In this document: positions 311 through 30,872 of the stretch, one piece after another | How positions within the stretch are numbered: position 1 is the first letter of the stretch | How the letters are laid out: every line of letters begins with the position of its first letter | Assembly (NCBI GenBank): GCA_031265825.1 | Contig: JAISCD010000014.1 | Span: forward strand, 1 to 36,154 | Source: Treponema sp. | Lineage (GTDB): Bacteria; Spirochaetota; Spirochaetia; Treponematales; Breznakiellaceae | Reading direction: 5' to 3' | Length of the DNA stretch: 36,154 bases | Position numbers and translations under genes: made by a program | Notes under the pieces: model-generated | The model's database searches: none | What the model was told of the DNA's origin: nothing | What the model saw: only the letters and a program-made list of their open reading frames with translations

Positions 311-323
311 AGTTGTGTTTTTT

Positions 324-424
324 GGGGGGTAGCGGAAGACCGCGCAAGCGGGCTGGAGCGGAGGGGGGCGCGACACAAGGGCAACGATTTGCCAATCACG
401 TTTAGGGAAAGCGCGCCCCCTTCT
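324..424 (+). repeat. ~105-bp GC-rich dispersed repeat, copy 1 (right-end orientation)
   Basis: It starts with a G6 run followed by TAGCGGAAGACCG and contains GGGGGGCGCG. It ends in GCGCGCCCCC. The GGGGGGCGCG and CGCGCCCCC tracts can pair as a long hairpin. The same element occurs at 17941-18044 and 28896-29000 (reverse) and at 21145-21248 and 30768-30872 (forward). This copy would be the right end of a cassette that extends left of the window. Confidence 0.85.
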
Positions 425-7832: not shown

Positions 7833-8525
7833 TCAAGGAATAACCGCCTTGAGAATCGGTCCAAAAGGTCCCGTTTTCCCTCGCGTATTCTCGTACTGAA
7901 GGCAGAAATACACCGTATTTCCACTCTCTCCGTCGAAGTTGAACAGTACCTTTTTCCTACTCGCCCATTCCGAATACGGCAAGTCGTTCCCGCTTATGGG
8001 CACGTCTTGTACGCGGAACTTGTACTGGGTCGTAGGCTCGCCGGTCAAGCCGTAATACACCCGCACCCCGCAGTCGCTTCCGTCACCGTGCTGGGGTCCG
8101 TTTGCCGGTTTGATGTTCTTCAGCTCAACCAAGTGAACGCCGGGGAAAGCCAAGTCCGCTTCTGGCTGGGCTGTAGGCTCGGACTCTGGAGTGGGTGTCT
8201 TATCTTGCGGCTTCAGTCCCAAAGAAACGAGGTCTACATTCGTCAATGGCGGAACCAGAAAATAGCGCCGCTTAAAATCCCGCATGAACGCTTCGAGGTC
8301 TGCAAACGCGGCTTTAGTCTTGGCTGTGGTGATCGTAGTTTTCTCGGTGGACAAGTCCTGCTCCAGCAAGGTTTCAGCCGCCGCTGTCTTCTCGGTCAAA
8401 TCCTGTACGGCTTTAGTAGGAACATTCCATGCGGCCGCACTTGCGACTAAAGCGGAAAGCCAATCTTTAGCCATCGCCAGCATAGACTCTCGCGCCCGCG
8501 GAAGCCAATCCGTATTTTTAGCCAT
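7833..8525 (-). CDS. Repeat-linked protein A (uncharacterised family, Fn3-like C-terminus)
   Basis: A 230-residue protein starting at ATG 8525 (MAKNTDW), with AAGGAGG placed correctly upstream. The N-terminal ~110 residues are predicted helical, with a proline-rich linker near 112-125. The C-terminal half looks like a beta-sandwich of fibronectin-III type and ends in a conserved block, VYFCLQYENTRGKTGPFGP, then AVIP. Proteins B (18598-19254) and C (29660-30316) share this architecture and C-terminal block. There is no signal peptide. A consensus promoter (8558-8586) and an exact 21-bp array lie immediately upstream, and a strong terminator follows. The function is unknown. I recognise the pattern as a widespread unnamed family, but I have no name for it. 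Confidence 0.85.
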   Translation of the reverse strand: MAKNTDWLPRARESMLAMAKDWLSALVASAAAWNVPTKAVQDLTEKTAAAETLLEQDLSTEKTTITTAKTKAAFADLEAFMRDFKRRYFLVPPLTNVDLVSLGLKPQDKTPTPESEPTAQPEADLAFPGVHLVELKNIKPANGPQHGDGSDCGVRVYYGLTGEPTTQYKFRVQDVPISGNDLPYSEWASRKKVLFNFDGESGNTVYFCLQYENTRGKTGPFGPILKAVIP

Positions 8526-8557
8526 CAAAATCCTCCTTATTAGAATGAATTTAGAAA

Positions 8558-8586: not shown

Positions 8587-8592
8587 GTGTTT

Positions 8593-9048: not shown

Positions 9049-10800
9049 ATGTTAGAAGCAATCAAAAATACATTGAAAGAAGCCTTTCCAGACGTGAAGC
9101 CTGAATTAGCCATTGACGCGCGGGGTATTCTTACTATCCGCGGGGAGTGCGCCTCATGGGACGAGGCGGTTGCCGTGGGTCACTTGGCGGCGCAGTCGCC
9201 AGAAGTTAAAAATGTCGTGAACGAACTAGCAGTCAAAGGACAGCCTGATTTCCGCAAGGACTATCGTCCATACCGAGAAATGGGAAACAAGGCTGGGCGC
9301 ATTGATACTGTCGACGTGCTTATCGTCGGGACAGGTATTTCCGGATGCGCCATTGCGCGGGAGCTTTCAAAATACAAACTCCGTATCCTCGCTGTAGACA
9401 AGGAAGACGATGTAGCTTGCGGGGCGACAAAGGCGAATAACGGCAATATACATCCGGGACACGACGTAAAGCCCGGCACGCTCAAGGCGAAGCTTAACCT
9501 TCGAGGCAACGAGCTTTATACGCAATGGGCGGACGAATTGGGGTTCGAGCTTCAGCGTTGCGGCGTCATGGGGGCGGTTAGCGACGCGAAACTGCGTCCG
9601 CTTCTTGAGAATGCCGCGGAAGGCGCGCGTAAGATGGGGGTTTCCAATCCCCAAACGCTTGACGGTGAACAGGCGAAACAGATCGAACCCGGATTTGCGG
9701 AACAGGGGATAGAACCTGCCGCCGCGATATGGTTTCCTTCGATGGGGCTTGTAGAGCCTTACAAGGTCGCGGTCGCCCTTGCAGAAAACGCGGTCATGAA
9801 CGGGGTAAGGTTTCTGTTCAACTGCACGGTCGCAGACGTTCTGACAAAGGACGGACGGGTAATCGGCGCGGTTACCAACCTCGGCATCATCGAAACGTCC
9901 TATATCATAAACTGCGCTGGAGTTTACGCTGACGAAATCTCCGCTATGGCTGGAGATAAATGTTACACTATCCACCCCCGTAAAGGTACTATCGCTATTC
10001 TCGATAAGAGCCGCAAGCCTATCTTCCATTCATTGGCGGGAATGTTAGACAGAGGCAAGCCCAAGCCCAAGAAGGACACTGAATCCAAAGGCGGCGGTAT
10101 GTGCCGCACTCCTGAATGGAATATCTTGATGGGTCCTTCGGCAACGGAAGTTCCGGACAAGGAAGACTTGAGTTCCACGCCGGAAGGATTAGCCTACGCC
10201 ATGTCTCTGGGAGAAGCTTACGGCATCGGATACGGAGACATTATCCGCTTTTTTACAGGAACCCGCCCTGCGGATTATAAAGAAGATTTCTTTATCGAGC
10301 TTTCCCCTGTTACCGGAGGATTTATCAATGTAGGGGGTATTCAGTCGCCCGGACTTGCGTCCGCGCCCGCAATAGCCGAAATGGTCGAAGGTATCTTTGT
10401 TGAAGCCCTAGCCCATGACGGTCCCCCGCTAGAGCGGAATCCTACCTTCAATCCCCTGAGGGAACGAGAGAAAGAATTCCGTCATCTAAGTCATGAGGAA
10501 CAGGACGAACTTATCCACCGAGAACCAGCCTACGGCAGGATCGTCTGTCGTTGTGAGAGCATTACCGAAGGAGAGATTCTCGCGGCGATACGATCCCCGT
10601 TACCGCCTTCGTCAGTAGACGCGGTAAAGCGCAGAACCAGAGCTGGTATGGGGCGTTGTCAAGGGGGCTTTTGTCAACCCCGTGTGCTGGAACTGTTGGC
10701 TCGTGAATTGGGGAAGGAATTGACCGACATAACCCTACGTGGAGAAGGTACCGCCATACTTATGGCTGATACCCGTCCGAATCGGGTTGGGAGCGTGTAG
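9049..10800 (+). CDS. GlpA-like FAD oxidoreductase with N-terminal BON-like and C-terminal BFD-like domains
   Basis: A 583-residue protein. Residues 1-65 resemble a BON domain (ARGILTIRGECASWDEA, SPEVKNVVNELAV). The DAO-type FAD domain starts with VLIVGTGISGCAIARELS near residue 87 and carries GATKANNGNIHPGHD. The C-terminus has a BFD-like [2Fe-2S] domain with CRCESITEGEI and GRCQGGFCQPRV. This is the layout of anaerobic GlpA-like dehydrogenases, which oxidise glycerol-3-phosphate or hydroxyacids and pass electrons to partner subunits. It is the first gene of the operon, 3 bp before the next gene. The substrate is not certain: sn-glycerol-3-phosphate is one option and a 2-hydroxyacid another. 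Confidence 0.85.
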   Translation: MLEAIKNTLKEAFPDVKPELAIDARGILTIRGECASWDEAVAVGHLAAQSPEVKNVVNELAVKGQPDFRKDYRPYREMGNKAGRIDTVDVLIVGTGISGCAIARELSKYKLRILAVDKEDDVACGATKANNGNIHPGHDVKPGTLKAKLNLRGNELYTQWADELGFELQRCGVMGAVSDAKLRPLLENAAEGARKMGVSNPQTLDGEQAKQIEPGFAEQGIEPAAAIWFPSMGLVEPYKVAVALAENAVMNGVRFLFNCTVADVLTKDGRVIGAVTNLGIIETSYIINCAGVYADEISAMAGDKCYTIHPRKGTIAILDKSRKPIFHSLAGMLDRGKPKPKKDTESKGGGMCRTPEWNILMGPSATEVPDKEDLSSTPEGLAYAMSLGEAYGIGYGDIIRFFTGTRPADYKEDFFIELSPVTGGFINVGGIQSPGLASAPAIAEMVEGIFVEALAHDGPPLERNPTFNPLREREKEFRHLSHEEQDELIHREPAYGRIVCRCESITEGEILAAIRSPLPPSSVDAVKRRTRAGMGRCQGGFCQPRVLELLARELGKELTDITLRGEGTAILMADTRPNRVGSV

Positions 10801-10803
10801 ACT

Positions 10804-12060
10804 ATGAAACGACTACATACTGATATTGCCGTTATCGGCGCGGGACCAGCCGGACTCGCGGCTGCATTGGAGGCGAAACGGCTTGGCGCAGATACGGTAA
10901 CGCTATTAGAACGGGACGCTGATCTAGGCGGTATTTTACAACAGTGTATCCATGACGGTTTTGGGATACACCGCTTTGGACGGCGCCTCTCAGGTACTCA
11001 ATACGCCCAAATCTTTATCGATCAGATGGAGAAAGCTGATATTGATGTGCTTACCGAAACTATGGTTCTGGAAATTGCGCCTAATCGCCGTATCTTCGCC
11101 TGTAATAAACAGGACGGGATACTTGATATTGAGTGCGGGGCGATCATTCTCGCTATGGGCTGTCGGGAGCGTACCGCGCCCCAAGTACTGATCTATGGGG
11201 ATCGCCCTGCCGGAGTGATGAGCGCCGGAGCGGTACAGCGCTATATCAACATGGAAGGATATTTGCCCGGACGAACCGCGGTGATACTTGGCTCAGGCGA
11301 CATAGGCCTCATCATGGCGCGGCGTATGACACTAGAGGGCATAAACGTTAAGGGTGTGTACGAGGTTATGGAAAGTCCGGGTGGGCTGACCCGAAACATC
11401 GTGCAGTGCCTCGATGACTTTAATATTCCGCTACATCTTTCAGAGACGGTGAGCTGGATTCATGGACATAATCGAGTGGAATCAGTTACCACTGTCAAGG
11501 TCGGGGCGGATCGCAAGCCCATCCCCGGCACAGAAACAGTAGTCCCCTGCGACCTCCTCGTGTTAGCGGTAGGGCTGATTCCGGAGAATGAGTTGTCCGT
11601 CAAGGCGGGCGTAGAGATCGACTCTCGAACCAAGGGACCTGTTCTGGATTCGGCGTTTATGACCAGCGTACCGGGGATTTTCGCCGCGGGAAATGTGGCG
11701 GCGGTGTTTGACCTCGTAGACTATGTATCCCAATCAGGAGAAACCGCCGCTCGCGGCGCGCTGGCTTTTTTGCGAGGAGAGCTTTCTGCCTCTGGCTGGG
11801 ACACGGTAGAAGCCGGCGAGAACGTAAGTTTCGTAACGCCTCAACGGATCCGTCGGGAAACTTCTATAGGAAAGACCTCATTCTTCCTGCGGGTAAAGAA
11901 GCCTATGCCGGAGGCAAAACTTGTTTGTTCTACGGAAGACGGCAACGTCATATTAAGAAAACGTCTCCGCCATGTCGCCCCTCCGGAAATGATCAGTTTC
12001 GAGATCGAGGTGCGGGGGCCGCTTTTGATTGAAATGCGGTCGGAGACTATACGATCCTAG
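10804..12060 (+). CDS. Pyridine-nucleotide-disulfide-type FAD oxidoreductase
   Basis: A 418-residue flavoprotein. The FAD-binding Rossmann motif is IAVIGAGPAGLAAALEAKRLG at the N-terminus (a one-residue offset does not matter). A second nucleotide-binding motif, VILGSGDIGLIMARRM, is near residue 158. GCRERT and the late FAAGNVAAVFDLVDYV are typical of the subfamily that accompanies GlpA-like proteins and DUF1667. It probably transfers electrons between the GlpA-like subunit and NAD(P) or another acceptor. It starts 3 bp after the upstream stop and ends 9 bp before the DUF1667 gene, so the three form a tight unit. Confidence 0.85.
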   Translation: MKRLHTDIAVIGAGPAGLAAALEAKRLGADTVTLLERDADLGGILQQCIHDGFGIHRFGRRLSGTQYAQIFIDQMEKADIDVLTETMVLEIAPNRRIFACNKQDGILDIECGAIILAMGCRERTAPQVLIYGDRPAGVMSAGAVQRYINMEGYLPGRTAVILGSGDIGLIMARRMTLEGINVKGVYEVMESPGGLTRNIVQCLDDFNIPLHLSETVSWIHGHNRVESVTTVKVGADRKPIPGTETVVPCDLLVLAVGLIPENELSVKAGVEIDSRTKGPVLDSAFMTSVPGIFAAGNVAAVFDLVDYVSQSGETAARGALAFLRGELSASGWDTVEAGENVSFVTPQRIRRETSIGKTSFFLRVKKPMPEAKLVCSTEDGNVILRKRLRHVAPPEMISFEIEVRGPLLIEMRSETIRS

Positions 12061-12069
12061 GGAGTATTT

Positions 12070-12435
12070 ATGGTAAAAGAATTTATTTGTATCGTCTGTC
12101 CCAATAGTTGCCGTCTCAAAGTTACCGCAACAGGGGAAGAAATTACCGTTACTGGAAATGAATGTGCGCGGGGTGAAAAACACGGTATTCACGAATACCG
12201 GGAGCCAACGCGGATGCTCACCACGACAATAGCAATTACCGGAGGAACTTTGACCCGTTTGCCGGTGATAAGTCGAGAAGAAGTGCCGAAAGCCCAGCTC
12301 GGTAGGTGCCTTGAGACGCTCTACAAGATGAAACTGAACGCCCCTGTGCGCTGTGGAGATATTATCGTAAAGAATATTTGTGATACCGGCGTGGATGTTG
12401 CGGCATCCCGCTCAATTAATAGGAAGGAAGGATAA
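12070..12435 (+). CDS. DUF1667 Fe-S protein
   Basis: A 121-residue DUF1667 protein. Its N-terminal cysteines (CIVCPNSC and a further one in GNECARGEKHG) are arranged like an Fe-S ligand set, and another cysteine lies at VRCGDII. The family almost always follows GlpA-like and FAD/NAD oxidoreductase genes, exactly as here. It is probably a small electron-transfer subunit of that complex. It has a good ribosome-binding site (GGGAG). It lies 6 bp from the following FAD-oxidase gene. Confidence 0.85.
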   Translation: MVKEFICIVCPNSCRLKVTATGEEITVTGNECARGEKHGIHEYREPTRMLTTTIAITGGTLTRLPVISREEVPKAQLGRCLETLYKMKLNAPVRCGDIIVKNICDTGVDVAASRSINRKEG

Positions 12436-12441
12436 CTAATT

Positions 12442-13866
12442 ATGGATAAACAAGAGATTGTAAGTGGATTACGAGCTTTACTCGGCGAAGATCGAGTGCA
12501 AGACACCCCTGAGATAATCAAAAAGGCGTCGACAGATTACATTGGTTTCAGGCAATATGAACGATTCGATGGCAAGGATTGGGTACCCAAGGCGGTCTGT
12601 GTAGTGAAGCCTCGCAGTACGGAAGAAGTTGCCAAAGCCCTTGGGTTTCTCAATCAAAACCGGATCGATACGGTGCCCCGTACCGGCGGGTCCAGCGTTA
12701 CCCTGAGTATTGAACCGGAAGACGGAGGGGTGATCCTTGACGGTTCAGAGATGAACGAAATTATGAGCCTTAACGAACAGGACATGATGCTCACTGCTCG
12801 GTGTGGAACTCCTCTGGAATACATAGAGAACTATCTGAATGAGCGCGGGTTCACCACCGGTCATTTCCCTCAATCTCTCCCTTTGGCTCATCTCGGCGGG
12901 CTTATCGCTACCCGAAGCATCGGGCAGTTTTCCACCCTGTACGGAGGCATTGAGGATCTTCTAGTAGGGCTTGAGGCGGTGTTAGCAGACGGTGAGGTTA
13001 TCAGAATAAAGAACAGCCCTCGACGCTCGGTGGGGCCAGACCTACGACATCTCTTTATCGGTAGCGAAGGAATGCTCGGCTTTATCACCGAAGCTACTAT
13101 CAAGATATTCCGTTACCATCCTGAAACCCGATGGATGCATGCGTGGGCAATCAAAGACATGACCGCCGGACTTGACTTCATTCGGGAGGTGATAGTGGAG
13201 GGTTATCGCCCTGCAGTAGTGAGACTCCACGATGCCGAAGAAGTACAGCGTATGTTTAGCGGTTCTATATCGGAAGATCACAGCGTACTCCTCTTTCTTG
13301 CTGAAGGACCTGCGCTTGTTACCGCCGCGATTGGGCAGGGAATAGCCAGAATCGCTGAACGCCACAAGACCATAGACTTAGGGACGCGACCTGTTGAGTC
13401 TTGGCTTAAAACACGGAACGATGTCTGTTACCACATGGACGAACCTGTCTATTACCGATACGGCATTGTGGCTGATACCTGTGAAATATCCGCGCCTTGG
13501 TCGGGAATCGCTAAGATTTACGAAGCGATAAAGGAACGACTCCCCAAAGAAATGCCGAATCTGGTCTCCATCGGTGGACATTCCTCCCATAGTTATATTC
13601 AAGGAACCAATATTTATTTTACATTCGGCTTCATTGTGAAAAACGGAGCTGAATCCGCGCGCTCTGATTACATGAAAGTCATCTCGGTTATCATGGAAGA
13701 AACGTTAAAGTGGGGCGGAAGCATCGCTCATCATCACGGATCGGGCAAATACCGCACCCGTTGGATGCCGGAGGAACACGGCAGTTCCTATCCCCTCCTC
13801 CGCAAGCTGAAAGACGCGCTCGACCCGAACAAGATACTGAATAAAGGCGTTCTATTGACCGATTAA
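12442..13866 (+). CDS. FAD_binding_4 oxidoreductase, alkyl-DHAP synthase/GlcD-like
   Basis: A 474-residue flavoenzyme of the VAO/GlcD superfamily. The FAD-binding PP loop is in PRTGGSSVTLSIEPEDGG. The segments TGHFPQSLPLAHLGGLIAT and SVGPDLRHLFIGSEGMLGF are closest in style to the alkyl-dihydroxyacetonephosphate synthase branch. HHHGSGKYR and LKDALDPNKILNKG sit at the C-terminus. It is followed at 10 bp by etfB1, so it probably passes electrons from its substrate (a 2-hydroxyacid or polyol derivative) to that ETF. AGPS-like homologues in bacteria are often simple dehydrogenases, so the ether-lipid role should not be assumed. Confidence 0.85.
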   Translation: MDKQEIVSGLRALLGEDRVQDTPEIIKKASTDYIGFRQYERFDGKDWVPKAVCVVKPRSTEEVAKALGFLNQNRIDTVPRTGGSSVTLSIEPEDGGVILDGSEMNEIMSLNEQDMMLTARCGTPLEYIENYLNERGFTTGHFPQSLPLAHLGGLIATRSIGQFSTLYGGIEDLLVGLEAVLADGEVIRIKNSPRRSVGPDLRHLFIGSEGMLGFITEATIKIFRYHPETRWMHAWAIKDMTAGLDFIREVIVEGYRPAVVRLHDAEEVQRMFSGSISEDHSVLLFLAEGPALVTAAIGQGIARIAERHKTIDLGTRPVESWLKTRNDVCYHMDEPVYYRYGIVADTCEISAPWSGIAKIYEAIKERLPKEMPNLVSIGGHSSHSYIQGTNIYFTFGFIVKNGAESARSDYMKVISVIMEETLKWGGSIAHHHGSGKYRTRWMPEEHGSSYPLLRKLKDALDPNKILNKGVLLTD

Positions 13867-13876
13867 AAGGACGCTG

Positions 13877-14674
13877 ATGAAAATCGTCGTTTGTTTTAAG
13901 GCTGTTCCCGAATTTGATCAAGTGGTTGACGAAGATTGGGACAGCTTTCACCCCACTGCGGATTGGGGATATGTGAAGCGGATTTTCGGTTGCTTTGATG
14001 AAAGCGCCTTAGAGACCGCGTTACGACTACGTTCCGCTTGGCAAGAATACAACGAAAAACCAGAATGTACCGCGCTCACGGCATCCCCTCTTCCTTCCCC
14101 GCTTTGTAAAACATTATTTGCGACAGGCTTTGACCGAGTCTTAGACCTTTGGACTAGTCTCCGTGGAGAAACGCCGACAACCTCCCTTGAATTCCAGCCG
14201 CGACAAACTGCGGCGTTATTAGCGGGCTACCTCAGCTCCGCTGGCTATGATCTTATCCTTGCAGGAAGACAAGCGGGCTACGCAGATACAGGGACGGTCC
14301 CCATATTGTTAGCGGAAATGCTCGGTGTCCCTGTGATAACGGGCATTGAGGAGATTGCGCCCTGTGGAGACGGCGCAGTCGAAATCAAACGGGTAAGCGG
14401 GACGGCGCGTGAACGACTAAAAGTTCGGCTCCCCGTCATGGTAACGTTAGGAAACAGCCCCGTATCGGCGCTCAGGGCGGTAACATTGAGCGCACGGATG
14501 AGCGCATCCAAACGAAACGCCGAAACGCCGACAGTATCCCTACCTCACGAGACAACCGCCGCCCTACCCCGCTTCAGTCTGGAAAGAGTACGCAAAACCT
14601 GCCGCTTTTTCTCCGCAGAAGACGGTCTACCCATGATCATATCCACACTACAAGAAGAATATCCACGAAGGTAA
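13877..14674 (+). CDS. etfB: Electron transfer flavoprotein beta subunit, copy 1
   Basis: A 265-residue EtfB. It begins MKIVVCFKAVPEFDQVV and has DESALETALRLR, where EtfB proteins contact the nucleotide. YDLILAGRQAGYADTGTVPILLAEMLG is the characteristic central block (positions from about residue 117). EtfB and EtfA form a soluble heterodimer that carries FAD and shuttles electrons from dehydrogenases. It lies between the FAD-oxidase gene and etfA1 with 5-10 bp gaps. It is slightly divergent compared with copy 2. Whether it binds AMP or a second, bifurcating FAD cannot be decided by eye. Confidence 0.88.
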   Translation: MKIVVCFKAVPEFDQVVDEDWDSFHPTADWGYVKRIFGCFDESALETALRLRSAWQEYNEKPECTALTASPLPSPLCKTLFATGFDRVLDLWTSLRGETPTTSLEFQPRQTAALLAGYLSSAGYDLILAGRQAGYADTGTVPILLAEMLGVPVITGIEEIAPCGDGAVEIKRVSGTARERLKVRLPVMVTLGNSPVSALRAVTLSARMSASKRNAETPTVSLPHETTAALPRFSLERVRKTCRFFSAEDGLPMIISTLQEEYPRR

Positions 14675-14679
14675 AAACA

Positions 14680-15552
14680 ATGACAACAGCCTTTATTTTA
14701 AGCGGTGAAACGGATCCCGCCGCGCCCCGTCTCTGGGAATTCATCGCGCCCATCCATACAACAAGCAATCACGTCGAATCATGGTATTCAGGCAGCTGGG
14801 ACATCCGCAGTGTCGAGGATTGCCTCTGCTGGCTAGAGAAACTCTGCGCCGCGCGACAGCCTGATCTCATCCTCTTGTCGGAAACTTCCGCCAACCATGA
14901 ACTAGGAACGCGCCTAAGCGCCAGAATCAACCGCATCTGTTACGCGGATACAACCATGCTCCTGCGAGAAGGGAAAAAGCTCTACGCTCGCAAGAAAGCG
15001 TGTAGTTCAAACCTCACGTGGGATGCCCCAATCGCGGAGTACCCCGCGGTTTTGACCGTTAGCGGAAAGAAAACGACGCATATCCCCAAAGAAAGCGGCT
15101 ATTCCCACATAGAAACCCGCCAGCCAACGCCCTTAACCCTCCCCCCTTGGCTCTTATCGCGCGAACAAATCGAAGTTTTTCCCACTAATCCCCTAGAGAC
15201 TGCGCCGTTACTCTTCATTGCTGGACACGGAGTGGGGAGTAAGGGCGCGTGCGAGCGGCTTCGGCGTGTTGCGGGACGCTTTGGCGCCCCGCTTGGGTTC
15301 AGCCGACCGGCCGCGCTTAACGGTTGGGGGGAAATCTCTGAGATTATCGGGCAATCAGGCATCCGTACCGGGGCGAAACACTGCGTTGCGGTGGGAATAT
15401 CTGGGGCGGCCGCGTTCATGGCGGGGATTGATTCTGCGGCGACGTTGATAGCCGTGAATCCTGATAAGAACGCGCCTATTTTTCATTACGCGGACATCGG
15501 AATCACCACCCACGCGGAAGAATTTATCACCGCGCTTGAGAAAGAAACATAG
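14680..15552 (+). CDS. etfA: Electron transfer flavoprotein alpha subunit, copy 1 (short)
   Basis: A 290-residue EtfA. The C-terminal FAD domain is clear: RTGAKHCVAVGISGAAAFMA, then AVNPDKNAPIFHYADIGI near the end. The N-terminal domain is shorter and more divergent than in copy 2 (333 residues), and starts MTTAFILSGETDP. It probably partners EtfB1 and serves the FAD oxidase at 12442. It is separated from the next FAD oxidase gene by 16 bp. It looks intact rather than truncated. Confidence 0.85.
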   Translation: MTTAFILSGETDPAAPRLWEFIAPIHTTSNHVESWYSGSWDIRSVEDCLCWLEKLCAARQPDLILLSETSANHELGTRLSARINRICYADTTMLLREGKKLYARKKACSSNLTWDAPIAEYPAVLTVSGKKTTHIPKESGYSHIETRQPTPLTLPPWLLSREQIEVFPTNPLETAPLLFIAGHGVGSKGACERLRRVAGRFGAPLGFSRPAALNGWGEISEIIGQSGIRTGAKHCVAVGISGAAAFMAGIDSAATLIAVNPDKNAPIFHYADIGITTHAEEFITALEKET

Positions 15553-15568
15553 AATAAGGAAACAAACA

Positions 15569-17119
15569 ATGACAAAGATCGAATTTATCTCTGCCTCCGA
15601 CCAGCTCGGCTACCTTCACGACGAGTCTCGGTTAAGCGGACGTGCGGATTACCTCGCCTTTCCGAAAGATGCGACCCAAGTCCGCGCCACAATCCTCCGC
15701 GCCGTGGAGGAAAAGCTCTCACTCACCATCCAAGGCTCGCGCACCGGCATTTCCGGCGGGGCTGTTCCCCGCGGAGGCGTGGTCCTTTCCACCGAAAAGA
15801 TGAGCCAACCCCTCGGTTTCTCCGAAGGGGACCTCCCAATCCTGCGCGTTCAAGGGGGAATGAGCATTGACGACATAACAACCCTGCTTCTGCGGGGAAT
15901 CCCCCCTGAGGATTGGGATGATGAGGGCAAAATATGCTTCCGAAAGCGGGCGCGAAGCCTCCGATTTGCGCCAAATCCCACGGAAACCACGGCAAGCATA
16001 GGGGGATCCTTTGCGTGTAATGCGCGGGGCCCCAATTCCCTGCTCTGGGGCGGCACAGGCGATCACGTACAGGGACTCGTATGGATCACTCCGCAAGGAG
16101 AAATCTGGCGCGTGGAACGCGGACGCTCTTGTTTCGACGAAATTGGCTGTGATCTCCCCAACGGCGGGCGCGTTTCCTGCAATAGCAGACTCCCTGACGG
16201 AGGAAGTCGGTACCTACACCCACGAGTCGGACTCGATCTCGTTGATTTTCTCGCGGGAAGCGAAGGACTCTTAGGCTGTGCGGCTGAACTCTCCCTCCGT
16301 CTCGTAGAAAAACCCGCGGCTGTCTGGGGAGTGGTCTATTTTTTTGAACAAGATCAACAAGCAATCGCCTTTGCCGAGTCCCTTCGGCGTGGGCGGGAAC
16401 ACAGCTCCCAGAGAGAAACGCTCTCCACGGTTGAATATTACGACCGATGGTCGCTTGAATTGATACGAAACCTTGCCCCGCACAACACAACCCTGAGGCA
16501 ACTCCCCTTCATCAACCCGTTAATGAACGCGGCGGTTCAAGTCGAGCTTGAAGGGGAGAGTTCCGAGGCGCTAGAGACGATTCTCGTCGAGCAATTGGAA
16601 GCGTTTCTGGCGTTTGGCGGCGGAGAAGAGAACACATGGGCGGCGGCAAGCCCTGTTGAACTTGAAAAATTCCATCTATTGCGCCACGCCGTGCCGGAAC
16701 TCATCAATGGAGAGATAGACAAGCTACGACAGACCTCGCCCGACCTACACAAGACAGCGGTAGACTTCATGGTTCCGCCGGAATTGGTCAACGGCTACCG
16801 CGAAACCTATCGGCGGGACATAGAAACGGCGGGATTGCGGGGCTTTATCTTCGGACACATCGCGGAAGGTCGCCTGCACGTGAACATTCTGCCGAAGAAT
16901 TCCCGCGAACTCCAACAAAGCTACGCGCTAATCGACGGTTGGGCGTCTTCTGTCGTCAGAGATCGCGGGATTCTAGCGGCTGAAAATGGAATCGGCTTAC
17001 TCAAACGCGATCTTCTCTGTCGTTTTCTTTCGTCAGAGCGGCTCGAACAGATACGTTCCCTCATCGGCGCGTTTGATCCGCAGAACATTTTGGGCGGTTT
17101 CGAGCCTATAGGAGATTAA
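15569..17119 (+). CDS. FAD-binding GlcD-like oxidoreductase, second copy
   Basis: A 516-residue VAO/GlcD-type flavoenzyme. The ATG at 15569 (MTKIEF) has AAGGA upstream; an in-frame TTG further upstream would overlap etfA1 and is not needed. The FAD loop is QGSRTGISGGAVPRGG. NPTETTASIGGSFACNARGP and GHIAEGRLHVNILP are classical GlcD/D-lactate dehydrogenase blocks, and the C-terminal AAENGIGLLKRDLL fits the family. It is followed 4 bp later by etfB2. The likely role is a 2-hydroxyacid (lactate or glycolate type) dehydrogenase feeding ETF copy 2. Substrate uncertain. Confidence 0.88.
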   Translation: MTKIEFISASDQLGYLHDESRLSGRADYLAFPKDATQVRATILRAVEEKLSLTIQGSRTGISGGAVPRGGVVLSTEKMSQPLGFSEGDLPILRVQGGMSIDDITTLLLRGIPPEDWDDEGKICFRKRARSLRFAPNPTETTASIGGSFACNARGPNSLLWGGTGDHVQGLVWITPQGEIWRVERGRSCFDEIGCDLPNGGRVSCNSRLPDGGSRYLHPRVGLDLVDFLAGSEGLLGCAAELSLRLVEKPAAVWGVVYFFEQDQQAIAFAESLRRGREHSSQRETLSTVEYYDRWSLELIRNLAPHNTTLRQLPFINPLMNAAVQVELEGESSEALETILVEQLEAFLAFGGGEENTWAAASPVELEKFHLLRHAVPELINGEIDKLRQTSPDLHKTAVDFMVPPELVNGYRETYRRDIETAGLRGFIFGHIAEGRLHVNILPKNSRELQQSYALIDGWASSVVRDRGILAAENGIGLLKRDLLCRFLSSERLEQIRSLIGAFDPQNILGGFEPIGD

Positions 17120-17123
17120 AACC

Positions 17124-17930
17124 GTGAAAATTGGGGTATGTATCAAACAAGTTCCTGCTGGTACTGCGCGTATGGACGACAAAACCGGTCTTTTGGTCAG
17201 GAGTTCTGCGGAAGGAACGCTGAATCCCTATGATTTATGTGCGATAACGGCGGCGTTACAAGCCGCGGCTGGGGTTGCGGAGGCTGGCGAGGTGGAAATT
17301 CTCGCTATTACCATGGGACCGCGTTCAGCGGAGCGAACTTTGCGGGAAGCTTTGTCGCTGGGGGCAACGAATGCTCTGCTTTTAAGCGATCCCGCCTTCT
17401 CCGGCGCGGATGTTACCGCCACATCGCGGACTTTGGCTGAGGCTTTGCGGAAATACGGCGTGCCGGATATGTTGTTTTGCGGGCAACAGACGACAGATGG
17501 GGACACAGCGCAGGTTCCTTTTGCGCTGGCGGCGCGATTGTCTGTTCCCGCGATAGGCTGGGTTAAGGGAATCGAGTATTTTAGGGCGGACGGCTATTCG
17601 GTTCTCCAAGAACTTTCCACAGGCGCGGTACAAGTTCGTGGTGGTTATCCTGCGCTTTTTGCGATTGGGCGGGAAGCTGTCCAGCCGCGTGCGCCTAATC
17701 TGAGTCGCAAGCTTGCCGCGCAAAGAATCCCCATCACGGTTTGGGGTCTTGCCGATCTTTCCCCTTCACGCGCTCAAGATTACGGGCTTACGGGTTCTCC
17801 CACGCGAGTAAAAGCCCTCTACACGCCGATACAAACCGCTAAAACTCCGCCTCTCCGTGTACCCGCCGCCACCGCCGCCTCGCTCATACGAGAAGCTCTC
17901 GACCAGCAAGCAAGCCTGTCTCAGACATAG
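17124..17930 (+). CDS. etfB: Electron transfer flavoprotein beta subunit, copy 2
   Basis: A 268-residue EtfB with a GTG start (KIGVCIKQVPAGTARMD) and GGAG upstream. LNPYDLCAITAALQAA and LFCGQQTTDGDTAQVPFALAARL (a family block near residues 118-140) identify it. It is more canonical than copy 1. Its partner etfA2 begins only at 21313. The 3.3 kb between them is an inserted cassette bounded by inverted repeats, so the two subunits were probably once adjacent. Confidence 0.9.
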   Translation: MKIGVCIKQVPAGTARMDDKTGLLVRSSAEGTLNPYDLCAITAALQAAAGVAEAGEVEILAITMGPRSAERTLREALSLGATNALLLSDPAFSGADVTATSRTLAEALRKYGVPDMLFCGQQTTDGDTAQVPFALAARLSVPAIGWVKGIEYFRADGYSVLQELSTGAVQVRGGYPALFAIGREAVQPRAPNLSRKLAAQRIPITVWGLADLSPSRAQDYGLTGSPTRVKALYTPIQTAKTPPLRVPAATAASLIREALDQQASLSQT

Positions 17931-17940
17931 TAAAATAATC

Positions 17941-18044
17941 AGAAGGGGGGCGCTATTTCCTAAACGAGATTGTATGCACTCGCCTTTGTATCGCGCCCCC
18001 CTCCTCCGGTTCCCCACAGCGCGGTCTTCCGCTACCCCCCAAAA
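17941..18044 (-). repeat. ~105-bp GC-rich dispersed repeat, copy 2 (left end of cassette B)
   Basis: It begins AGAAGGGGGGCGCTATTTCC at the outer side and ends in C6 AAAAC at the inner side. It is the inverse of the copy at 21145-21248, and the pair flanks cassette B. A preceding AAATAATC is shared with the left end of cassette C. GGGGGGCGC and GCGCCCCCC within it can form a long hairpin. Confidence 0.9.
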
Positions 18045-18066
18045 CCCACACGGTGGGAGTAAAACA

Positions 18067-18160
18067 ATACCCATTTAAACACCCGAAGGGTGCGCTACAC
18101 CCAAAAATCCCCACTACGAGAATAAAACAAGACGCTTTTAAACACCCGAAGGGTGCTTTA
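18067..18160. repeat. CACCCGAAGGGTG hairpin repeats
   Basis: CACCCGAAGGGTG (five-base arms, GAA loop) occurs at 18080-18092 and 18143-18155, both preceded by TTTAAA. These are fragments of the 126-bp repeat family that forms the tandem block at 28499-28880. From 18160 to about 18330 I see only AT-rich sequence without a gene. Confidence 0.75.
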
Positions 18161-18336
18161 CACGTCAAAATTCACGAAATTGCGTCAAAATAAACGATGT
18201 ATGGTCTTGACTTTTGAAGGCAATAATAGTAAATTTAAGGCTGGTGAGAAACATCCTTCTTTGATCTTTTTGACTTATTTGACTTTGCGTTAAATTATCC
18301 GATGAGTCTAAACCTATATGATGAAATTTTGTAAAT

Positions 18337-18515
18337 ATTTTTAACAATCTTATTTTAACGAGTAACAATTTTGTCAATATTGTTAGGATTTCAGCAAAAA
18401 TTGTTAGCAATCCTGTTAAGATTGTTAAGTATATTATATAAATTGTTAAAAATATCGTATTGATTGTTAAGCGTTCCGTATTGGTTTTTAGAACTTTCAT
18501 GTTAATTGATAAAAA
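18337..18515. repeat. Array B: degenerate 21-bp tandem repeat array
   Basis: ATTGTTA or a close variant occurs at 18379, 18400, 18421, 18442, 18463, 18484 and 18505, with a weaker unit at 18337, all in exact 21-bp phase. The rest of each unit is poorly conserved. An AACAAT/ATTGTT inverted pair occurs at the left side. A leftward open frame through it (LTIxxxL heptads) is an artefact. The array ends about 25 bp before the promoter of protein B. Confidence 0.85.
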
Positions 18516-18538
18516 AAATATTTTTTTAAAAATTGTTC

Positions 18539-18567
18539 TTGACAAGTTGTTTAAATAGATGTATTAT
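18539..18567 (+). promoter_or_regulatory. Consensus promoter of repeat-linked protein B
   Basis: TTGACA (18539-18544), a 17-bp spacer and TATTAT (18562-18567) lie directly downstream of array B. The ribosome-binding site GAGGAG precedes the ATG at 18598. Confidence 0.85.
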
Positions 18568-18597
18568 ATATATAAATTTATTTAGAGGAGTTTTAAG

Positions 18598-19254
18598 ATG
18601 GCTGATTGTATTCCTATAAGAGAGATTGATCTTTTAAGATGGGCGTTGAACTTTGCCACGCTTTGTCTTGCGAATCAGGATTTGTGGGGGCTTCCGCCTA
18701 CGGAAGTTGCCACATTGAACGCCGCGGTAGCCGAATTTGATGGCATTTACCGGACGGCTCTTGGTCCTAACGCTTCAAAGGCTGATATTTTACTCAAGAA
18801 TGAGAAGAAAAAGGCTCTCAAGGTGTTATTACGCGACTTCAAAAATCGGAATATTGACCCAAATCGGGCGGTGACTGATCCGAATCGTGAGCGTCTTGGT
18901 CTGACGATCCGCGATATTAAGAATACGCCTGTGCCGCCTCCAACGACTGTGCCGGAATTTGAGTTCACTTATCCGGGTGCGCGGCGGATCGATGTACATT
19001 TTAGGGATTTTGGGAGCAAGCGTAAAGCAAAGCCTAAGGGCGCGGCTGGAGCGGTTATCCTGCACTCAATACGGACAACGCCGCCGGTGAATCAAGATGA
19101 GTTGGCTCATTCGGTTTTTACGAGTCGCACGCCGTATCATTTTGAATTCAAGGAAGATGAACGGGGTAAAACGGTCTATGTCGCGCTTTATTGGCAGAAT
19201 AGGAAGGGTGATAGGGGCCCGTGGAGCGAAATTCAACCTGTTATTATCCCTTGA
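18598..19254 (+). CDS. Repeat-linked protein B (uncharacterised family, Fn3-like C-terminus)
   Basis: A 218-residue paralogue of proteins A and C. The N-terminal ~90 residues are helical. A conserved hinge, TDPNRERLGLTIRD, matches protein C's TNPDRERLGLHIRD. A proline-rich linker follows (PVPPPTTVP). The C-terminal half is Fn3-like, with HSVFTSRTPYHFEF and the terminal block VYVALYWQNRKGDRGPWSE, then VIIP. There is no signal peptide or membrane helix. It has its own consensus promoter and a strong terminator, so it is an independent, probably well-expressed unit inside cassette B. Function unknown. Confidence 0.85.
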   Translation: MADCIPIREIDLLRWALNFATLCLANQDLWGLPPTEVATLNAAVAEFDGIYRTALGPNASKADILLKNEKKKALKVLLRDFKNRNIDPNRAVTDPNRERLGLTIRDIKNTPVPPPTTVPEFEFTYPGARRIDVHFRDFGSKRKAKPKGAAGAVILHSIRTTPPVNQDELAHSVFTSRTPYHFEFKEDERGKTVYVALYWQNRKGDRGPWSEIQPVIIP

Positions 19255-19275
19255 GTGAAGAATGTTTCGATTCTT

Positions 19276-19329
19276 TTACGACCGCTACGGTTTGCTTACT
19301 AAAGCTCTGACCGTGCGGTCGTAATTTTT
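19276..19329 (+). terminator. Intrinsic terminator of repeat-linked protein B
   Basis: TTACGACCGC-ACGGT (19276-19291) pairs with ACCGT-CGGTCGTAA (19310-19324), followed by TTTTT. It lies about 20 bp after the stop of protein B and separates it from the cargo gene. Confidence 0.85.
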
Positions 19330-19332
19330 ATA

Positions 19333-19347
19333 TGGAACAGGTTAAAT
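19333..19347 (+). repeat. 15-bp repeat of the methyltransferase 3' end
   Basis: TGGAACAGGTTAAAT here recurs at 21067-21081, where it encodes the end of the methyltransferase (VEQVK and the stop). Here the same frame reads MEQVK followed by a stop. It may be the remnant of an earlier related cargo gene. Confidence 0.5.
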
Positions 19348-19478
19348 GAGTCATTACTTGAGGAATAGCGGAAGCTTTATCATCTAAACTCTACTGTGCA
19401 AGGCAGGGATGGAGACAGAGGGATGTAAAAGGATGTTTGTTTGTCTTAAAAGTCTCTTGATAATAGAAGGACTGATTT

Positions 19479-21083
19479 ATGAATACTATAGAGGAAACCC
19501 AATTTGGCGTGAATAAATTGATTTTAGGCGATAATCTCGAAATATTAAGGAATATAGAGAGCGAATCAGTTGATCTTATTTATCTTGATCCGCCGTTTTT
19601 TTCAAATAGGAACTACGAAGTCATCTGGGGAGACCAAGGCGAAGTGCGAAGTTTCCAAGATCGTTGGGCTGGCGGTGTGGATCATTACATTGCGTGGCTA
19701 AAAGAGCGGGTTGTTGAGATGTATCGTGTTCTTAAAACTACCGGAAGTATTTTTTTGCATTGTGATTGGCACGCTAATGCTTATATCCGCGTAGAAATTT
19801 TGGATAAACTCTTCGGAAAAAGCAATTTTAGAAATGAAATTGTTTGGTGTTATAAAACAACCTTAAAAGTTTCTTCACATCATCTTGGTAGAGACCATGA
19901 CTCTATCTTTGTTTATGCAAAGAGCAAAGATTTTTTAATACACCCTGATCAAAATGATTACCCGCCGAGTGAAAATACGCTGAAAAGATGGGGGAAATAC
20001 GCAGATGCCGATGGTTTTGTAAGTAATAAACACTTTGCGGGAAGCGCATCCACTATTATAAATACCGATGATGAATCAAAAGGATTCAATATTAAGCATG
20101 GCGTTCCGAGAGATGTTTGGGAAATAGCGCACTTAGCTGGAAATAATCCTGAAAAAATAGGCTACCCCACGCAGAAACCCTTTGCCTTACTTGAACGGAT
20201 CATAAAAATGGCGAGTAATGAGGGCGATCTTGTGCTTGATCCATTCATGGGTGGAGGAACCACTATCGCGGTCGCGGATAAACTTAACCGCAAGTGGGTG
20301 GGAATCGATCAATCCGCAATGGCGGTAAAAGTTACTGAACTGCGTTTGCACCAGCAGACGGATTTATTCACGAGTATCTACGCTAATTCTTATGTACTGC
20401 AACTGCATAAATACGATTATGACGCATTGTGTAATAAAGATGCGTTTGAATTTGAAAATTGGATCATTGGGCAGTTTGGCGGTGTACCACGCGGAAAGAA
20501 AGGCGGAGACGCGGGTGTGGATGGGAAGGCGGCTGACGGAGCGCCGATTCAAGTGAAGCGATCCGAGAGCGTAGGCGTGAATGTGGTAAAGAATTTTTTC
20601 GTATCCGCCAAGCAATTCGATAAGACGGCTTTTGAAAAAAACGTCGCGGCGAGTCAGCCTGTTGGGTATATCATCGCTTTTTCCTTTGGCAAAGGAGCGG
20701 TACAGGAAGTTGCGCGACTAAAGAATCAGGAAAACGTCGTTATATCACTCGTGCCTGTGGATTCGATTATTCCTGTCTCTAAAAAGCCGAGTATTTCCTT
20801 TGAAGTTCGTGAAATTGATCGACGTGCCGATGGAATTCGTGAGATAGAAATTGCCGCAAGAGGAGAGAGTCCGTCTGGCGTCGAGTTTTATAGCTGGGAT
20901 TTCGCATACAACGACGCCGAAGGGTTCAAGCCGTCTGTCGTCATGAATAAGGATGGCGTTCAATGCCGGGAATTTAAGGCGGGCGTTTATCATGTCGCGG
21001 TGAAAGCAGTGGATAACGATGGGTTGGAGAGCATAGAAACGATAAAATTAAAGGTAAACGGCGCGGTGGAACAGGTTAAATAA
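19479..21083 (+). CDS. DNA methyltransferase fused to a PD-(D/E)xK nuclease-like domain and a PKD/Ig-like domain
   Basis: A 534-residue cargo gene of cassette B. Residues 1-300 form a beta-class amino-methyltransferase: the catalytic DPPF is at 37-40, the SAM motif DPFMGGGTT near 254, and PTQKP between them. Residues ~325-430 look like an Mrr/PD-(D/E)xK nuclease domain (GGDAGVDG followed by IQVKRSESVGVNVVKNF). The last ~95 residues resemble a PKD or Ig-like beta-sandwich (FYSWDF, YHVAVKAVDNDGLES). Methylation and cleavage in one chain would be a type IIG-like or defence arrangement. The nuclease assignment rests on motif spacing only. The specificity is unknown and no separate restriction gene is adjacent. 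The ribosome-binding site is AGAAGGA. Confidence 0.8.
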   Translation: MNTIEETQFGVNKLILGDNLEILRNIESESVDLIYLDPPFFSNRNYEVIWGDQGEVRSFQDRWAGGVDHYIAWLKERVVEMYRVLKTTGSIFLHCDWHANAYIRVEILDKLFGKSNFRNEIVWCYKTTLKVSSHHLGRDHDSIFVYAKSKDFLIHPDQNDYPPSENTLKRWGKYADADGFVSNKHFAGSASTIINTDDESKGFNIKHGVPRDVWEIAHLAGNNPEKIGYPTQKPFALLERIIKMASNEGDLVLDPFMGGGTTIAVADKLNRKWVGIDQSAMAVKVTELRLHQQTDLFTSIYANSYVLQLHKYDYDALCNKDAFEFENWIIGQFGGVPRGKKGGDAGVDGKAADGAPIQVKRSESVGVNVVKNFFVSAKQFDKTAFEKNVAASQPVGYIIAFSFGKGAVQEVARLKNQENVVISLVPVDSIIPVSKKPSISFEVREIDRRADGIREIEIAARGESPSGVEFYSWDFAYNDAEGFKPSVVMNKDGVQCREFKAGVYHVAVKAVDNDGLESIETIKLKVNGAVEQVK

Positions 21084-21144
21084 GCCACCGCCTAGGAGTC
21101 GTCCTCCGAGTATTTAGAAGTGGCTTGCCCTTCCCCACCGTGGG

Positions 21145-21248
21145 GTTGGGGGGTGGCGGAAGCCCGCCTAAAGGCGGGCTGAAGACAGGGGGGCGCGACA
21201 GGAAGTCATCTGTCTGCCGAGGAGTTTTGGAAATAGCGCCCCCCTTCT
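21145..21248 (+). repeat. ~105-bp GC-rich dispersed repeat, copy 3 (right end of cassette B)
   Basis: Forward copy, inverse of 17941-18044. It contains a perfect hairpin, AGCCCGCC-TAAA-GGCGGGCT (21161-21180), and ends GGAAATAGCGCCCCCCTTCT. CACCCTTCGGGTG (21249-21261) directly follows, as in other repeat-rich spots of the window. Confidence 0.9.
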
Positions 21249-21312
21249 CACCCTTCGGGTGTTTAAAAGCGTCCTGCTCTGTCGCCTATTGTGGTCAGCA
21301 TGGGAGTTTTTG

Positions 21313-28477: not shown

Positions 28478-28880
28478 ACCCGAAGGGTGTTTAAATACAC
28501 CCAAAGGGTGTTAGACGACTTCGCAATGAGTGTTGTACGAAAGCGCAGGACGCTTTAAAACACCCGAAGGGTGCGCTTGTAAACAAGCGGAGCCTCCGCG
28601 TTGTTAAGTGATCTGCTTATCCCGCACGCCAGCGTGTTAGACGACTTCGTAATGGGTGTTGTACGAAAACGCAGGACGCTTTAAAACACCCGAAGGGTGC
28701 GCTTGTAAACAAGCGGAACCTCCGCGTTGTTAAGTGATCTGCTTATTCCGCACGCCAGCGTGTTAGACAACTTCACAATGGGTGTTATACGAAAACGCAG
28801 GACGCTTTAAAACACCCGAAGGGTGCGCTTGCGCAAGCGGGGTTCCTCCGCATTGTTAAGTGATCTGCTTATCCCATAAG
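28478..28880. repeat. 126-bp tandem repeat block with three nested hairpins
   Basis: CAGGACGCT recurs at 28546, 28672 and 28798, and CACCCGAAGGGTG at 28561, 28687 and 28813, an exact 126-bp period over three units. Each unit contains short hairpins: CACCC-GAA-GGGTG, GCTTG-TAAA-CAAGC (shortened in the last unit) and ACGC-CA-GCGT. An additional half unit lies at 28478-28545. Diverged copies occur at 18067-18160, 21249-21280 and 33537-33740. I see no gene in it. Confidence 0.9.
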
Positions 28881-28895
28881 CACAGCCAAATAATC

Positions 28896-29000
28896 AGAAG
28901 GGGGGCGCTATTTCCTAAACTTTTCGGCATACAGTCGCCTTTTTGACGCGCCCCCCTCACTCCAGCCCGCTTGCGCGGTCTTCCACTACCCCCCAAAACC
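28896..29000 (-). repeat. ~105-bp GC-rich dispersed repeat, copy 4 (left end of cassette C)
   Basis: It begins AGAAGGGGGGCGCTATTTCC on the outer side and ends in C6 AAAACCC on the inner side. It is the inverse of the copy at 30768-30872. The preceding AAATAATC is identical to that before copy 2. Confidence 0.9.
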
Positions 29001-29040
29001 CAGAGGGGTTTCTTTAACCCGGTGTCGCCCGTATTATCCT

Positions 29041-29659: not shown

Positions 29660-30316
29660 TTACGGGATGATCGTTTCGACGATGTCGCTCCAGGGACCGG
29701 CTTCACCTTTTTCATTTTCATAGCACGCGGCATAGAAAATCTTCTTCCCGCGTTCTTCTTCGCTGTAGTTGAATACTTGGCTTACCTTCCTGCGGAAGGT
29801 AGAATGACGCAAATCATCCGCGTTTATAGGGGCGTTGTCTCGAATTTCCCACGCATAGCGCACGCCGTAAGCGTCCGCAGGCTTGGTTTTCTTCCCGGTG
29901 GCTTTGTTGATCGCTATTCCCGTGTGTTGGCGGTTATTTGTCGGGGTTATTTCCAAGGATGGTCTGCTTATGGGTCGGGGCTTTGGCGTAGGGTGACGGT
30001 CGCGGATGTGCAAACCCAGCCTTTCACGATCAGGATTGGTAACTACGTTGTTATAATCAACGTATTGGTTTTTAATATCCCGCACTTCGGCTTTAAGAGC
30101 ATCCCGCTTCTCATTTTTGTCCAACACAAGCGCCTTCGTGCTGTTCTCTCCTGTCGCCTCGTCATAGACTTTTATATAAGCCGTTATTTGCGCGGTTAAA
30201 CCGGTTATGATTGACGCAGGAATACCCCACGCTTCCGCGTGTTCAGCCAGAACTGCACAGAAATTCTCTAACCATCTTACTAGATCAGCGTCTCTCATAG
30301 GGAAAAAATCAGGCAT
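29660..30316 (-). CDS. Repeat-linked protein C (uncharacterised family, Fn3-like C-terminus)
   Basis: A 218-residue paralogue of proteins A and B, with ATG 30316 and AAGGAG upstream. The helical N-terminus (DADLVRWLENFCAVLAEHA) aligns with protein B's IDLLRWALNFATLCLANQD. The hinge TNPDRERLGLHIRD is nearly identical to that of B. The linker is PTPKPRPISRP. The C-terminal block IFYAACYENEKGEAGPWSD, then ETIIP, closes the Fn3-like half. It has no signal peptide. It has its own promoter, its own array upstream and its own terminator. Function unknown. Confidence 0.85.
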   Translation of the reverse strand: MPDFFPMRDADLVRWLENFCAVLAEHAEAWGIPASIITGLTAQITAYIKVYDEATGENSTKALVLDKNEKRDALKAEVRDIKNQYVDYNNVVTNPDRERLGLHIRDRHPTPKPRPISRPSLEITPTNNRQHTGIAINKATGKKTKPADAYGVRYAWEIRDNAPINADDLRHSTFRRKVSQVFNYSEEERGKKIFYAACYENEKGEAGPWSDIVETIIP

Positions 30317-30430: not shown

Positions 30431-30770
30431 AAAATTCGTCATTTTTTTTCAAACACCCTTCTTATTGCCAAAACCGCCCCTCTTTTTTCCCTTACCACCC
30501 GTCTTATTTTTTAAACCACCACTCTTATTTCTTTAAAAACCCGTCTGGTTTTTTAAACCACCATTCTTATTTCTTTAAAAACCCGTCTTATTTCTAAAAC
30601 CACCACTCTTTTTTTCTTTACCACCCCTCTGGTTTCTTTTACTACTCATCTGGTTGCCGAAGCCGATATGCTGGTTTATTTCAAAAGAGGTCTATTTTTT
30701 CTAATAGCCTTTCTGGTTTTTTTAGGAAGCCATCTGGTTTTTGGGATAGCCCGTCTGGTTTTCTTGATTT
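30431..30770. repeat. Array C: 21-bp tandem repeat array
   Basis: A TCTT/TCTG anchor occurs at 30460, 30481, 30502, 30523, 30544, 30565, 30586, 30607, 30628, 30649, 30691, 30712, 30733 and 30754, with variant anchors at 30439 and 30670, all in exact 21-bp phase (16 units). The unit is CCACC-ACTCTTATTTCTTTA-like. In the better units GGTTT-AAA-AAACC forms a dyad. It becomes more degenerate toward the right. Confidence 0.9.
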
Positions 30771-30872
30771 GGGGGGTAGCGGAAGACCGACTTTAGGCGG
30801 GCTAGAGCGCAGGGGGGCGCGACAAAAGGGCGACTGTGTGCCGAAAAGTTTCGGAAATAGCGCCCCCCTCCT
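30768..30872 (+). repeat. ~105-bp GC-rich dispersed repeat, copy 5 (right end of cassette C)
   Basis: Forward copy starting TTTGGGGGGTAGCGGAAGAC and ending GGAAATAGCGCCCCCCTCCT. CCGAAA-AG-TTTCGG (30841-30854) is a perfect hairpin inside it. It abuts array C and lies 11 bp from the stop of murC. Confidence 0.9.

What the first reader, a model, noticed from the sequence alone, without database searches (positions are those of the whole stretch)
17931..21312. Cassette B splits an electron-transfer operon between etfB and etfA
Genes from 9049 to 17930 are spaced by 3-16 bp. Then 3.4 kb with inverted ends, its own promoter and terminators separate etfB2 from its partner etfA2 (start 21313). The simplest reading is a recent insertion. 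The operon must now express etfA2 through the cassette or from a promoter in it.
Basis: partly seen in the sequence, partly recalled or inferred. Interest (0 to 1): 0.7.

Follow-up and report, generated by a model that had tools for sequence, protein, structure and literature searches.

The report
Repeat-bounded cassette splits etfB from etfA
In a termite-gut Treponema-like bacterium, a 3.4-kb block carrying a DNA methyltransferase and a member of a hugely multiplied gene family has been inserted between two genes of an electron-transfer operon that sit side by side in every relative checked, and the repeats at its ends belong to a mobile repeat family linked to RAYT transposases.

Summary
The observation largely holds and the insertion reading is supported. 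In 79 of 79 loci from other genomes that carry both genes, etfB lies directly upstream of etfA; same-genus relatives G002 and G003 have the whole operon with a gap of about 50 bp. Only this window has 3.4 kb there. The insert holds a 218-aa gene with a strong sigma70-like promoter, a beta-class DNA methyltransferase with a possible nuclease domain, and an inverted copy of a ~103-bp palindrome at each end. That palindrome is not private to the cassette: at least 84 copies occur in 684 kb of this genome. It has a GT(A/G)G head plus hairpin and lies 2-98 bp downstream of 5 of 15 RAYT transposase genes, so it is REP/REPIN-like. The 218-aa protein (helical bundle plus Fn3 fold) has ~50 paralogues in this 57%-complete genome; repeats beside them always point outward (15 of 15). 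Best explanation: a non-autonomous, REP-bounded cassette, one of many, probably mobilised in trans by RAYT (not shown). It probably replaced the last etfB2 codons and the etfA2 leader; etfA2 is probably transcribed through or from the cassette (not tested). "Recent" cannot be dated.

The parts
9049..17119 (+). upstream operon: DAO/Fer2_BFD oxidoreductase, pyridine nucleotide-disulphide oxidoreductase, 12070 ORF, glcD-like, etfB1, etfA1, glcD-like 2
   Evidence: Pfam; order conserved in G002, G003, G011 and, in part, a Clostridiales MAG and Clostridium sp. CS001
17124..17930 (+). etfB2; last residues (LDQQASLSQT) differ from and are longer than relatives (LAEC/LAEA/LAE)
   Evidence: PF01012 99.5 bits; C-termini compared
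17941..18057 (-). left copy of the ~103-bp REP/REPIN-like palindrome, outer end towards etfB2
   Evidence: nhmmer and alignment
18030..18155 (.). two tandem copies (63 bp) of a dispersed repeat module with CACCCGAAGGGTG
   Evidence: module found elsewhere in genome
18160..18597 (+). AT-rich leader with promoter TTGACA-17-TATTAT at 18539-18567 and ribosome-binding site AGAGGAG
18598..19254 (+). 218-aa protein: N-terminal helical bundle + C-terminal Fn3-like domain; member of a ~50-copy paralogous family
19275..19330 (+). hairpin plus AATTTTTAT, likely intrinsic terminator after the 218-aa gene
   Evidence: fold -29.9 kcal/mol; partial hit
19479..21083 (+). beta-class N6/N4 DNA methyltransferase with hypervariable central region (residues 118-222) and C-terminal region with D-x-G-x-D-G..QVK motif (possible Mrr-like nuclease)
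   Evidence: PF01555 165.7 bits; Mrr_cat E 0.02, below threshold
21134..21248 (+). right copy of the REP/REPIN-like palindrome, outer end towards etfA2
21249..21299 (+). dispersed repeat module reaching to 14 bp before the etfA2 ATG
   Evidence: 53 nt at 91% to own contig C49
21313..22314 (+). etfA2; ATG 21313 adds 8 residues upstream of GTG 21337, which aligns with the start codon in relatives
   Evidence: PF01012 and PF00766
7285..7809 (+). RAYT (REP-associated tyrosine transposase), one of 15 in this genome; candidate trans-acting enzyme
   Evidence: NF047646 93.7 bits, cut-off 80
7833..8528 (-). another 218-family gene, convergent with the RAYT gene (24 bp apart)
28896..29005 (-). left palindrome of a second 218 cassette in the window
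29660..30316 (-). 218-family gene of the second cassette
30766..30872 (+). right palindrome of the second cassette
314..424 (+). further copy of the palindrome near the contig start

Best explanation
The 3.4-kb block is a non-autonomous gene cassette inserted into an ancestral etfB2-etfA2 junction. Shown: the junction is uninterrupted in all relatives where both genes were found; the block is bounded by inverted copies of a REP/REPIN-like palindrome whose outer ends face the operon; the same palindrome lies directly downstream of 5 RAYT transposase genes in the same genome; about 50 paralogues of the 218-aa gene lie preferentially on the inner side of these repeats, several bounded on both sides and followed by unrelated genes (aldolase, secreted proteins, DNA methyltransferase and others). 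Inferred: RAYT (or recombination between repeats) moved the segment in trans, with the 218-aa gene as the usual resident and the methyltransferase as cargo. Inferred: insertion replaced the last codons and stop of etfB2 and the leader of etfA2, and etfA2 is now transcribed by read-through or from the cassette promoter at 18539-18567, since the cassette is co-oriented and has no T-run terminator at its end.
For: Insertion: G002/G003 have the full operon with etfB2-etfA2 adjacent; 79 of 79 loci with both genes have them adjacent, HSP-to-HSP 9-636 nt. Repeat family: at least 84 copies in 684 kb; GT(A/G)G head in 65 of 80 copies, and a hairpin within 38 nt in 66 of 66 copies with a head. RAYT link: 5 of 15 RAYT genes have the repeat 2-98 bp 3' and on the same strand, P about 2e-8 by density. 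Orientation: 218 genes next to a repeat are on its inner side 15 of 15; 21 in 175 kb of inner territory against 7 in 321 kb of outer, P 2e-5; successive repeats alternate 37 of 51, P 0.002, and outward-facing pairs are closer together, P 0.003. Junction: repeat module reaches 21299; etfB2 C-terminus and etfA2 N-terminus differ from the relatives compared. Assembly error unlikely: longest exact match of the region to other fetched contigs is under 32 nt. Promoter 11 of 12.
Against: Only one empty/filled site was resolved; flanks of the window's second cassette are not on one contig in relatives. In relatives, 218 genes and the methyltransferase mostly do not sit beside this repeat family, so gene family and repeat are not obligately linked. 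Two recent 218 duplicates (C32, C116) share 92% identity up to, but not into, the repeat, at different spacings. The RAYT in this window has no copy of the repeat within 6.8 kb. No target-site duplication is visible (expected for IS200/605-like enzymes, so neutral). No movement was observed. The left junction's repeat homology is weak (24 nt, E 0.2). The genome is a 57%-complete MAG, and sequence was fetched because it held repeats or 218 genes, so densities are upper estimates.
Confidence: 0.55

Rival explanations
1. Ordinary insertion of foreign or duplicated genes into the operon by unspecified recombination; the repeats arrived separately, as they do in many intergenic spaces of this genome, and do not define a mobile unit.
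For: Repeats are dispersed in at least 84 copies, many without 218 genes; 218 genes and the methyltransferase occur in relatives without the repeat; repeat position differs between recent 218 duplicates.
Against: 218 genes lie on the inner side of the neighbouring repeat 15 of 15 times, and inner territory is enriched; independent arrival does not predict an orientation rule.
Confidence: 0.33
2. The split state is ancestral and G002/G003 lost the cassette, or the operon was assembled differently in each lineage.
For: G011, the closest relative for this operon, does not have etfA2 within 760 bp of etfB2.
Against: Adjacency in 79 of 79 loci including Clostridium and Proteobacteria; G011 has a different gene there, without the 218 gene, methyltransferase or the same repeat.
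Confidence: 0.04
3. Assembly chimera: the MAG contig was joined wrongly through a repeat.
For: Metagenome assembly, 117 contigs, 57% complete; repeats at both junctions.
Against: The etf genes flank both sides in the expected order and orientation; the longest exact match of the region to other fetched contigs is under 32 nt, and within the window 33 nt.
Confidence: 0.04
4. An integron-type gene cassette with attC-like palindromes.
For: Palindromes of about 100 bp between genes look superficially attC-like; two genomes of the same order outside this genus carry a true integron integrase (G038, G040).
Against: No integron integrase over the cut-off in this genome (best 76 bits against 265); repeats are dispersed and paired inverted, not one per cassette in an array.
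Confidence: 0.02

Closest known systems
REP/REPIN elements with RAYT transposases (Nunvar et al. 2010, PMC2817692; Bertels and Rainey 2011, PMC3116915)
   Same: High-copy, mostly extragenic palindromes with a GT(A/G)G head and GC-rich hairpin, adjacent to RAYT genes of the same genome; inverted pairing.
   Different: Unit is about 103 bp with mixed modules; RAYT is itself multicopy (15, 80-100% identical); repeats bound segments carrying other genes rather than only REP doublets or a single RAYT.
Mobile insertion cassettes (MIC; e.g. MIC231A1 of Bacillus cereus, mic-qnrD; PMC3913671)
   Same: Passenger genes between inverted repeats, no transposase inside, presumed mobilisation in trans.
   Different: MIC ends are ends of DDE-type insertion sequences (own knowledge) and usually leave target-site duplications; here the ends are REP-like and no duplication is seen.
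Type II/IIG restriction-modification enzymes (beta-class methyltransferases)
   Same: N6_N4_Mtase domain; invariant framework with a hypervariable target-recognition-like region.
   Different: Nuclease domain only suggested by motif (Mrr_cat below threshold); C-terminal PKD-like extension (sub-threshold); no separate restriction gene.

Membership tests
REP/REPIN repeats | many dispersed, mostly extragenic copies | tested here: met
   84 copies in 684 kb, 7 inside an ORF call of at least 150 aa
REP/REPIN repeats | GT(A/G)G head followed by GC-rich palindrome | tested here: met
   65 of 80 copies have GTGG/GTAG; hairpin in 66 of 66 copies with a head; the stem starts a few nt after the head rather than at once
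REP/REPIN repeats | RAYT gene in the same genome | tested here: met
   15 matches, several over the curated cut-off
REP/REPIN repeats | RAYT genes flanked by two inverted copies of the repeat | tested here: inconclusive
   5 of 15 have one copy 2-98 bp 3', same strand; the other side is often cut by contig ends; the window's own RAYT has none within 6.8 kb
REP/REPIN repeats | replicative unit is a doublet of short (20-40 bp) REPs | tested here: inconclusive
   single imperfect palindrome of about 103 bp with an internal hairpin
Mobile insertion cassette | passenger genes bracketed by inverted repeats, no transposase inside | tested here: met
   18598-21083 holds only the 218-aa gene and the methyltransferase
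Mobile insertion cassette | target-site duplication | tested here: not met
   none visible at the repeat ends (sequence)
Mobile insertion cassette | mobilised in trans by a resident transposase | not testable with these tools
   needs an experiment
Integron cassette | integron integrase | tested here: not met
   TIGR02249 best 76 bits against cut-off 265 in this 57%-complete genome
Fused restriction-modification enzyme | methyltransferase domain | tested here: met
   PF01555 2e-48
Fused restriction-modification enzyme | nuclease domain | tested here: inconclusive
   Mrr_cat E 0.02 below threshold; invariant D-x-G-x-D-G...QVK; structure model unusable, pLDDT 41

The most novel reading that the evidence does not exclude
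RAYT transposases in termite-gut Treponema mobilise whole gene cassettes in trans: segments bounded by outward-facing REP elements, with a clade-restricted 218-aa helical/Fn3 protein (about 50 copies per genome) as resident gene and variable cargo, spread through the genome and into operons.
Probability: 0.3. Interest if true: 0.8.

Novelty: new variant of a known kind. Interest (0 to 1): 0.52.

Why it matters
RAYTs are thought to move only their own short REP repeats; repeat-bounded cassettes with cargo would make them agents of gene movement and operon disruption. The locus gives a clean before/after site and a concrete test. The about 50-copy, clade-restricted 218-aa family with an Fn3 fold is an unexplained expansion in an ecologically important symbiont group.

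Tried and rejected
Integron cassettes: no integron integrase found in the genome. Simple terminal inverted repeats private to the cassette: rejected, the ends are a genome-wide family and the second inverted pair is not collinear. Known RNA elements in the window: no Rfam hit. 218-aa protein as a known family: no Pfam, NCBIfam, PHROGs or PADLOC hit. Empty site for the window's second cassette: flanking genes are on different contigs in relatives. Structure of the methyltransferase: model too poor to use. Linkage of methyltransferase and 218 gene in relatives: not found in general.
Full report
Origin. The window is a whole contig (G000:C25) of a 1.81-Mb, 57%-complete genome in 117 contigs. The closest named records with orthologues of etfA2 are Treponema/Spirochaetales MAGs (isolates Gsp477_bin179, Gx481_bin52, Ct408_bin23, Kf353_bin62). 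That these come from termite guts is my recollection of the record series, not a tool result.

Observation. The operon from 9049 runs with gaps of a few bases through etfB1, etfA1, a second glcD-like gene and etfB2. Then come 3382 bp with two same-strand ORFs before etfA2. The promoter upstream of the first ORF matches the sigma70 consensus at 11 of 12 positions with a 17-bp spacer. A strong hairpin with a T-run follows the first ORF. None closes the segment before etfA2.

Is it an insertion? In same-genus G002 and G003 the whole operon is present and etfB2 and etfA2 are about 50 bp apart. In 80 further loci from a genome scan, 79 had both genes and all 79 had them adjacent (HSP-to-HSP 9-636 nt, the longer values reflecting unaligned tails); the operon order extends to a Clostridiales MAG and Clostridium sp. 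CS001. So adjacency is ancestral and the 3.4 kb is an insertion in this lineage. The nearest relative for the operon, G011, has a lipoprotein gene after etfB2 and its contig ends 760 bp on, so this junction may have been disturbed twice; that lipoprotein resembles the gene behind a 218-family gene on own contig C86 (sequence comparison by eye).

The ends. The inverted ends are two copies of an imperfect palindrome of about 103 bp. A profile from these two found 86 matches, 84 of them strong, in 684 kb of this genome. Copies start with TTGGGGGGT(A/G)GCGGAAG and end with GGAAATAGCGCCCCCCTCCT. A GT(A/G)G head is present in 65 of 80 copies by pattern, and all 66 copies with a head by a slightly looser pattern have a hairpin right after it, the architecture of REPs described for RAYT systems (PMC2817692). 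RAYT genes occur 15 times in this genome, the window's own at 7285-7809 scoring above the curated cut-off. Five of the 15 have a copy of this very repeat 2-98 bp downstream on the same strand; the chance of that at the observed density is about 2e-8.

The resident gene. The 218-aa protein has 51 matches in this genome (46 ORFs in the fetched part). It is present in every same-genus genome searched and in about half of the family, and absent from 197 other Spirochaetota genomes sampled, three of them of the same family. It matches no family library. The predicted structure (pLDDT 90.8) is a helical bundle followed by a domain with fibronectin type III fold. Genes downstream of the paralogues are diverse: sugar-nucleotide enzymes, aldolase, secreted and lipoproteins, a DNA methyltransferase (functions read from the sequences, mostly not tested against libraries).

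The orientation rule. Where a 218 gene is the neighbour of a repeat it lies on the inner side 15 of 15 times. Counting by territory, 21 lie in 175 kb on inner sides and 7 in 321 kb on outer sides (P 2e-5). Successive repeats alternate in orientation 37 of 51 times, and outward-facing pairs are closer than inward-facing ones (P 0.003). Several cassettes of 1.8-4.9 kb with a 218 gene have both ends, two of them in this window. In two places a 218 gene is convergent with a RAYT gene 24-44 bp away. This suggests repeat-bounded units, but the link is statistical: in relatives the 218 genes and methyltransferases usually lack this repeat, and two recent duplicates stop before the repeat.

The cargo. 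The 534-aa protein is a beta-class N6/N4 methyltransferase. Across eight copies in the genus and family the framework is 81-86% identical but the central region only 30%, as expected of changing target specificity. The C-terminal part has an invariant D-x-G-x-D-G...QVK motif and a sub-threshold match to Mrr_cat; a nuclease domain is likely but unproven. The structure model failed.

Effect on the operon. The right-hand repeat module reaches 21299, 14 bp before the ATG of etfA2; the start in relatives aligns with GTG 21337, so eight residues may have been added. The last residues of etfB2 differ from those of relatives. Both genes remain open. Expression of etfA2 by read-through or from 18539-18567 is inference. 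A misassembly is unlikely: no exact match of 32 nt or more to other fetched contigs, and 33 nt within the window.

Verdict. Insertion: confident (about 0.95). REP-bounded cassette moved with help of RAYT: moderate (about 0.55 for the whole statement, less for the RAYT step alone).

Noticed in passing
window 7833-8528, 18598-19254, 29660-30316; loci L045-L072, L141-L160: A paralogous family of 218-aa helical/Fn3 proteins with about 50 copies in a 57%-complete genome and no match in any family library.
   Followed up: partly
window 7285-7809; L277-L286: RAYT transposases are multicopy (15 here, 33 matches in G002) and 80-100% identical to each other in this genome.
   Followed up: partly
window 19479-21083; L045, L046, L161-L167: Methyltransferase copies share a conserved frame with a hypervariable recognition-like region, suggesting swapping of specificity in the genus.
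   Followed up: partly
L039 around 13211-13672; L041; L042: Broken or partial etfA2 copies: one with a stop in G002, remnants in G005 and G009, suggesting decay of the pathway in some sister species.
   Followed up: no
outer flanks of repeats, e.g. L059, L067, L048: Arrays of 7-mers such as TTAGCAG/TTAGTAG follow many repeat copies, part of intergenic repeat mosaics.
   Followed up: no
window 2-307, 8592-8812, 28508-28875, 30444-30762: Tandem arrays with periods that are multiples of 21 (21, 42, 63, 126 bp) recur in the window; 8592-8812 lies in an ORF reading FENPRA-type repeats.
   Followed up: no
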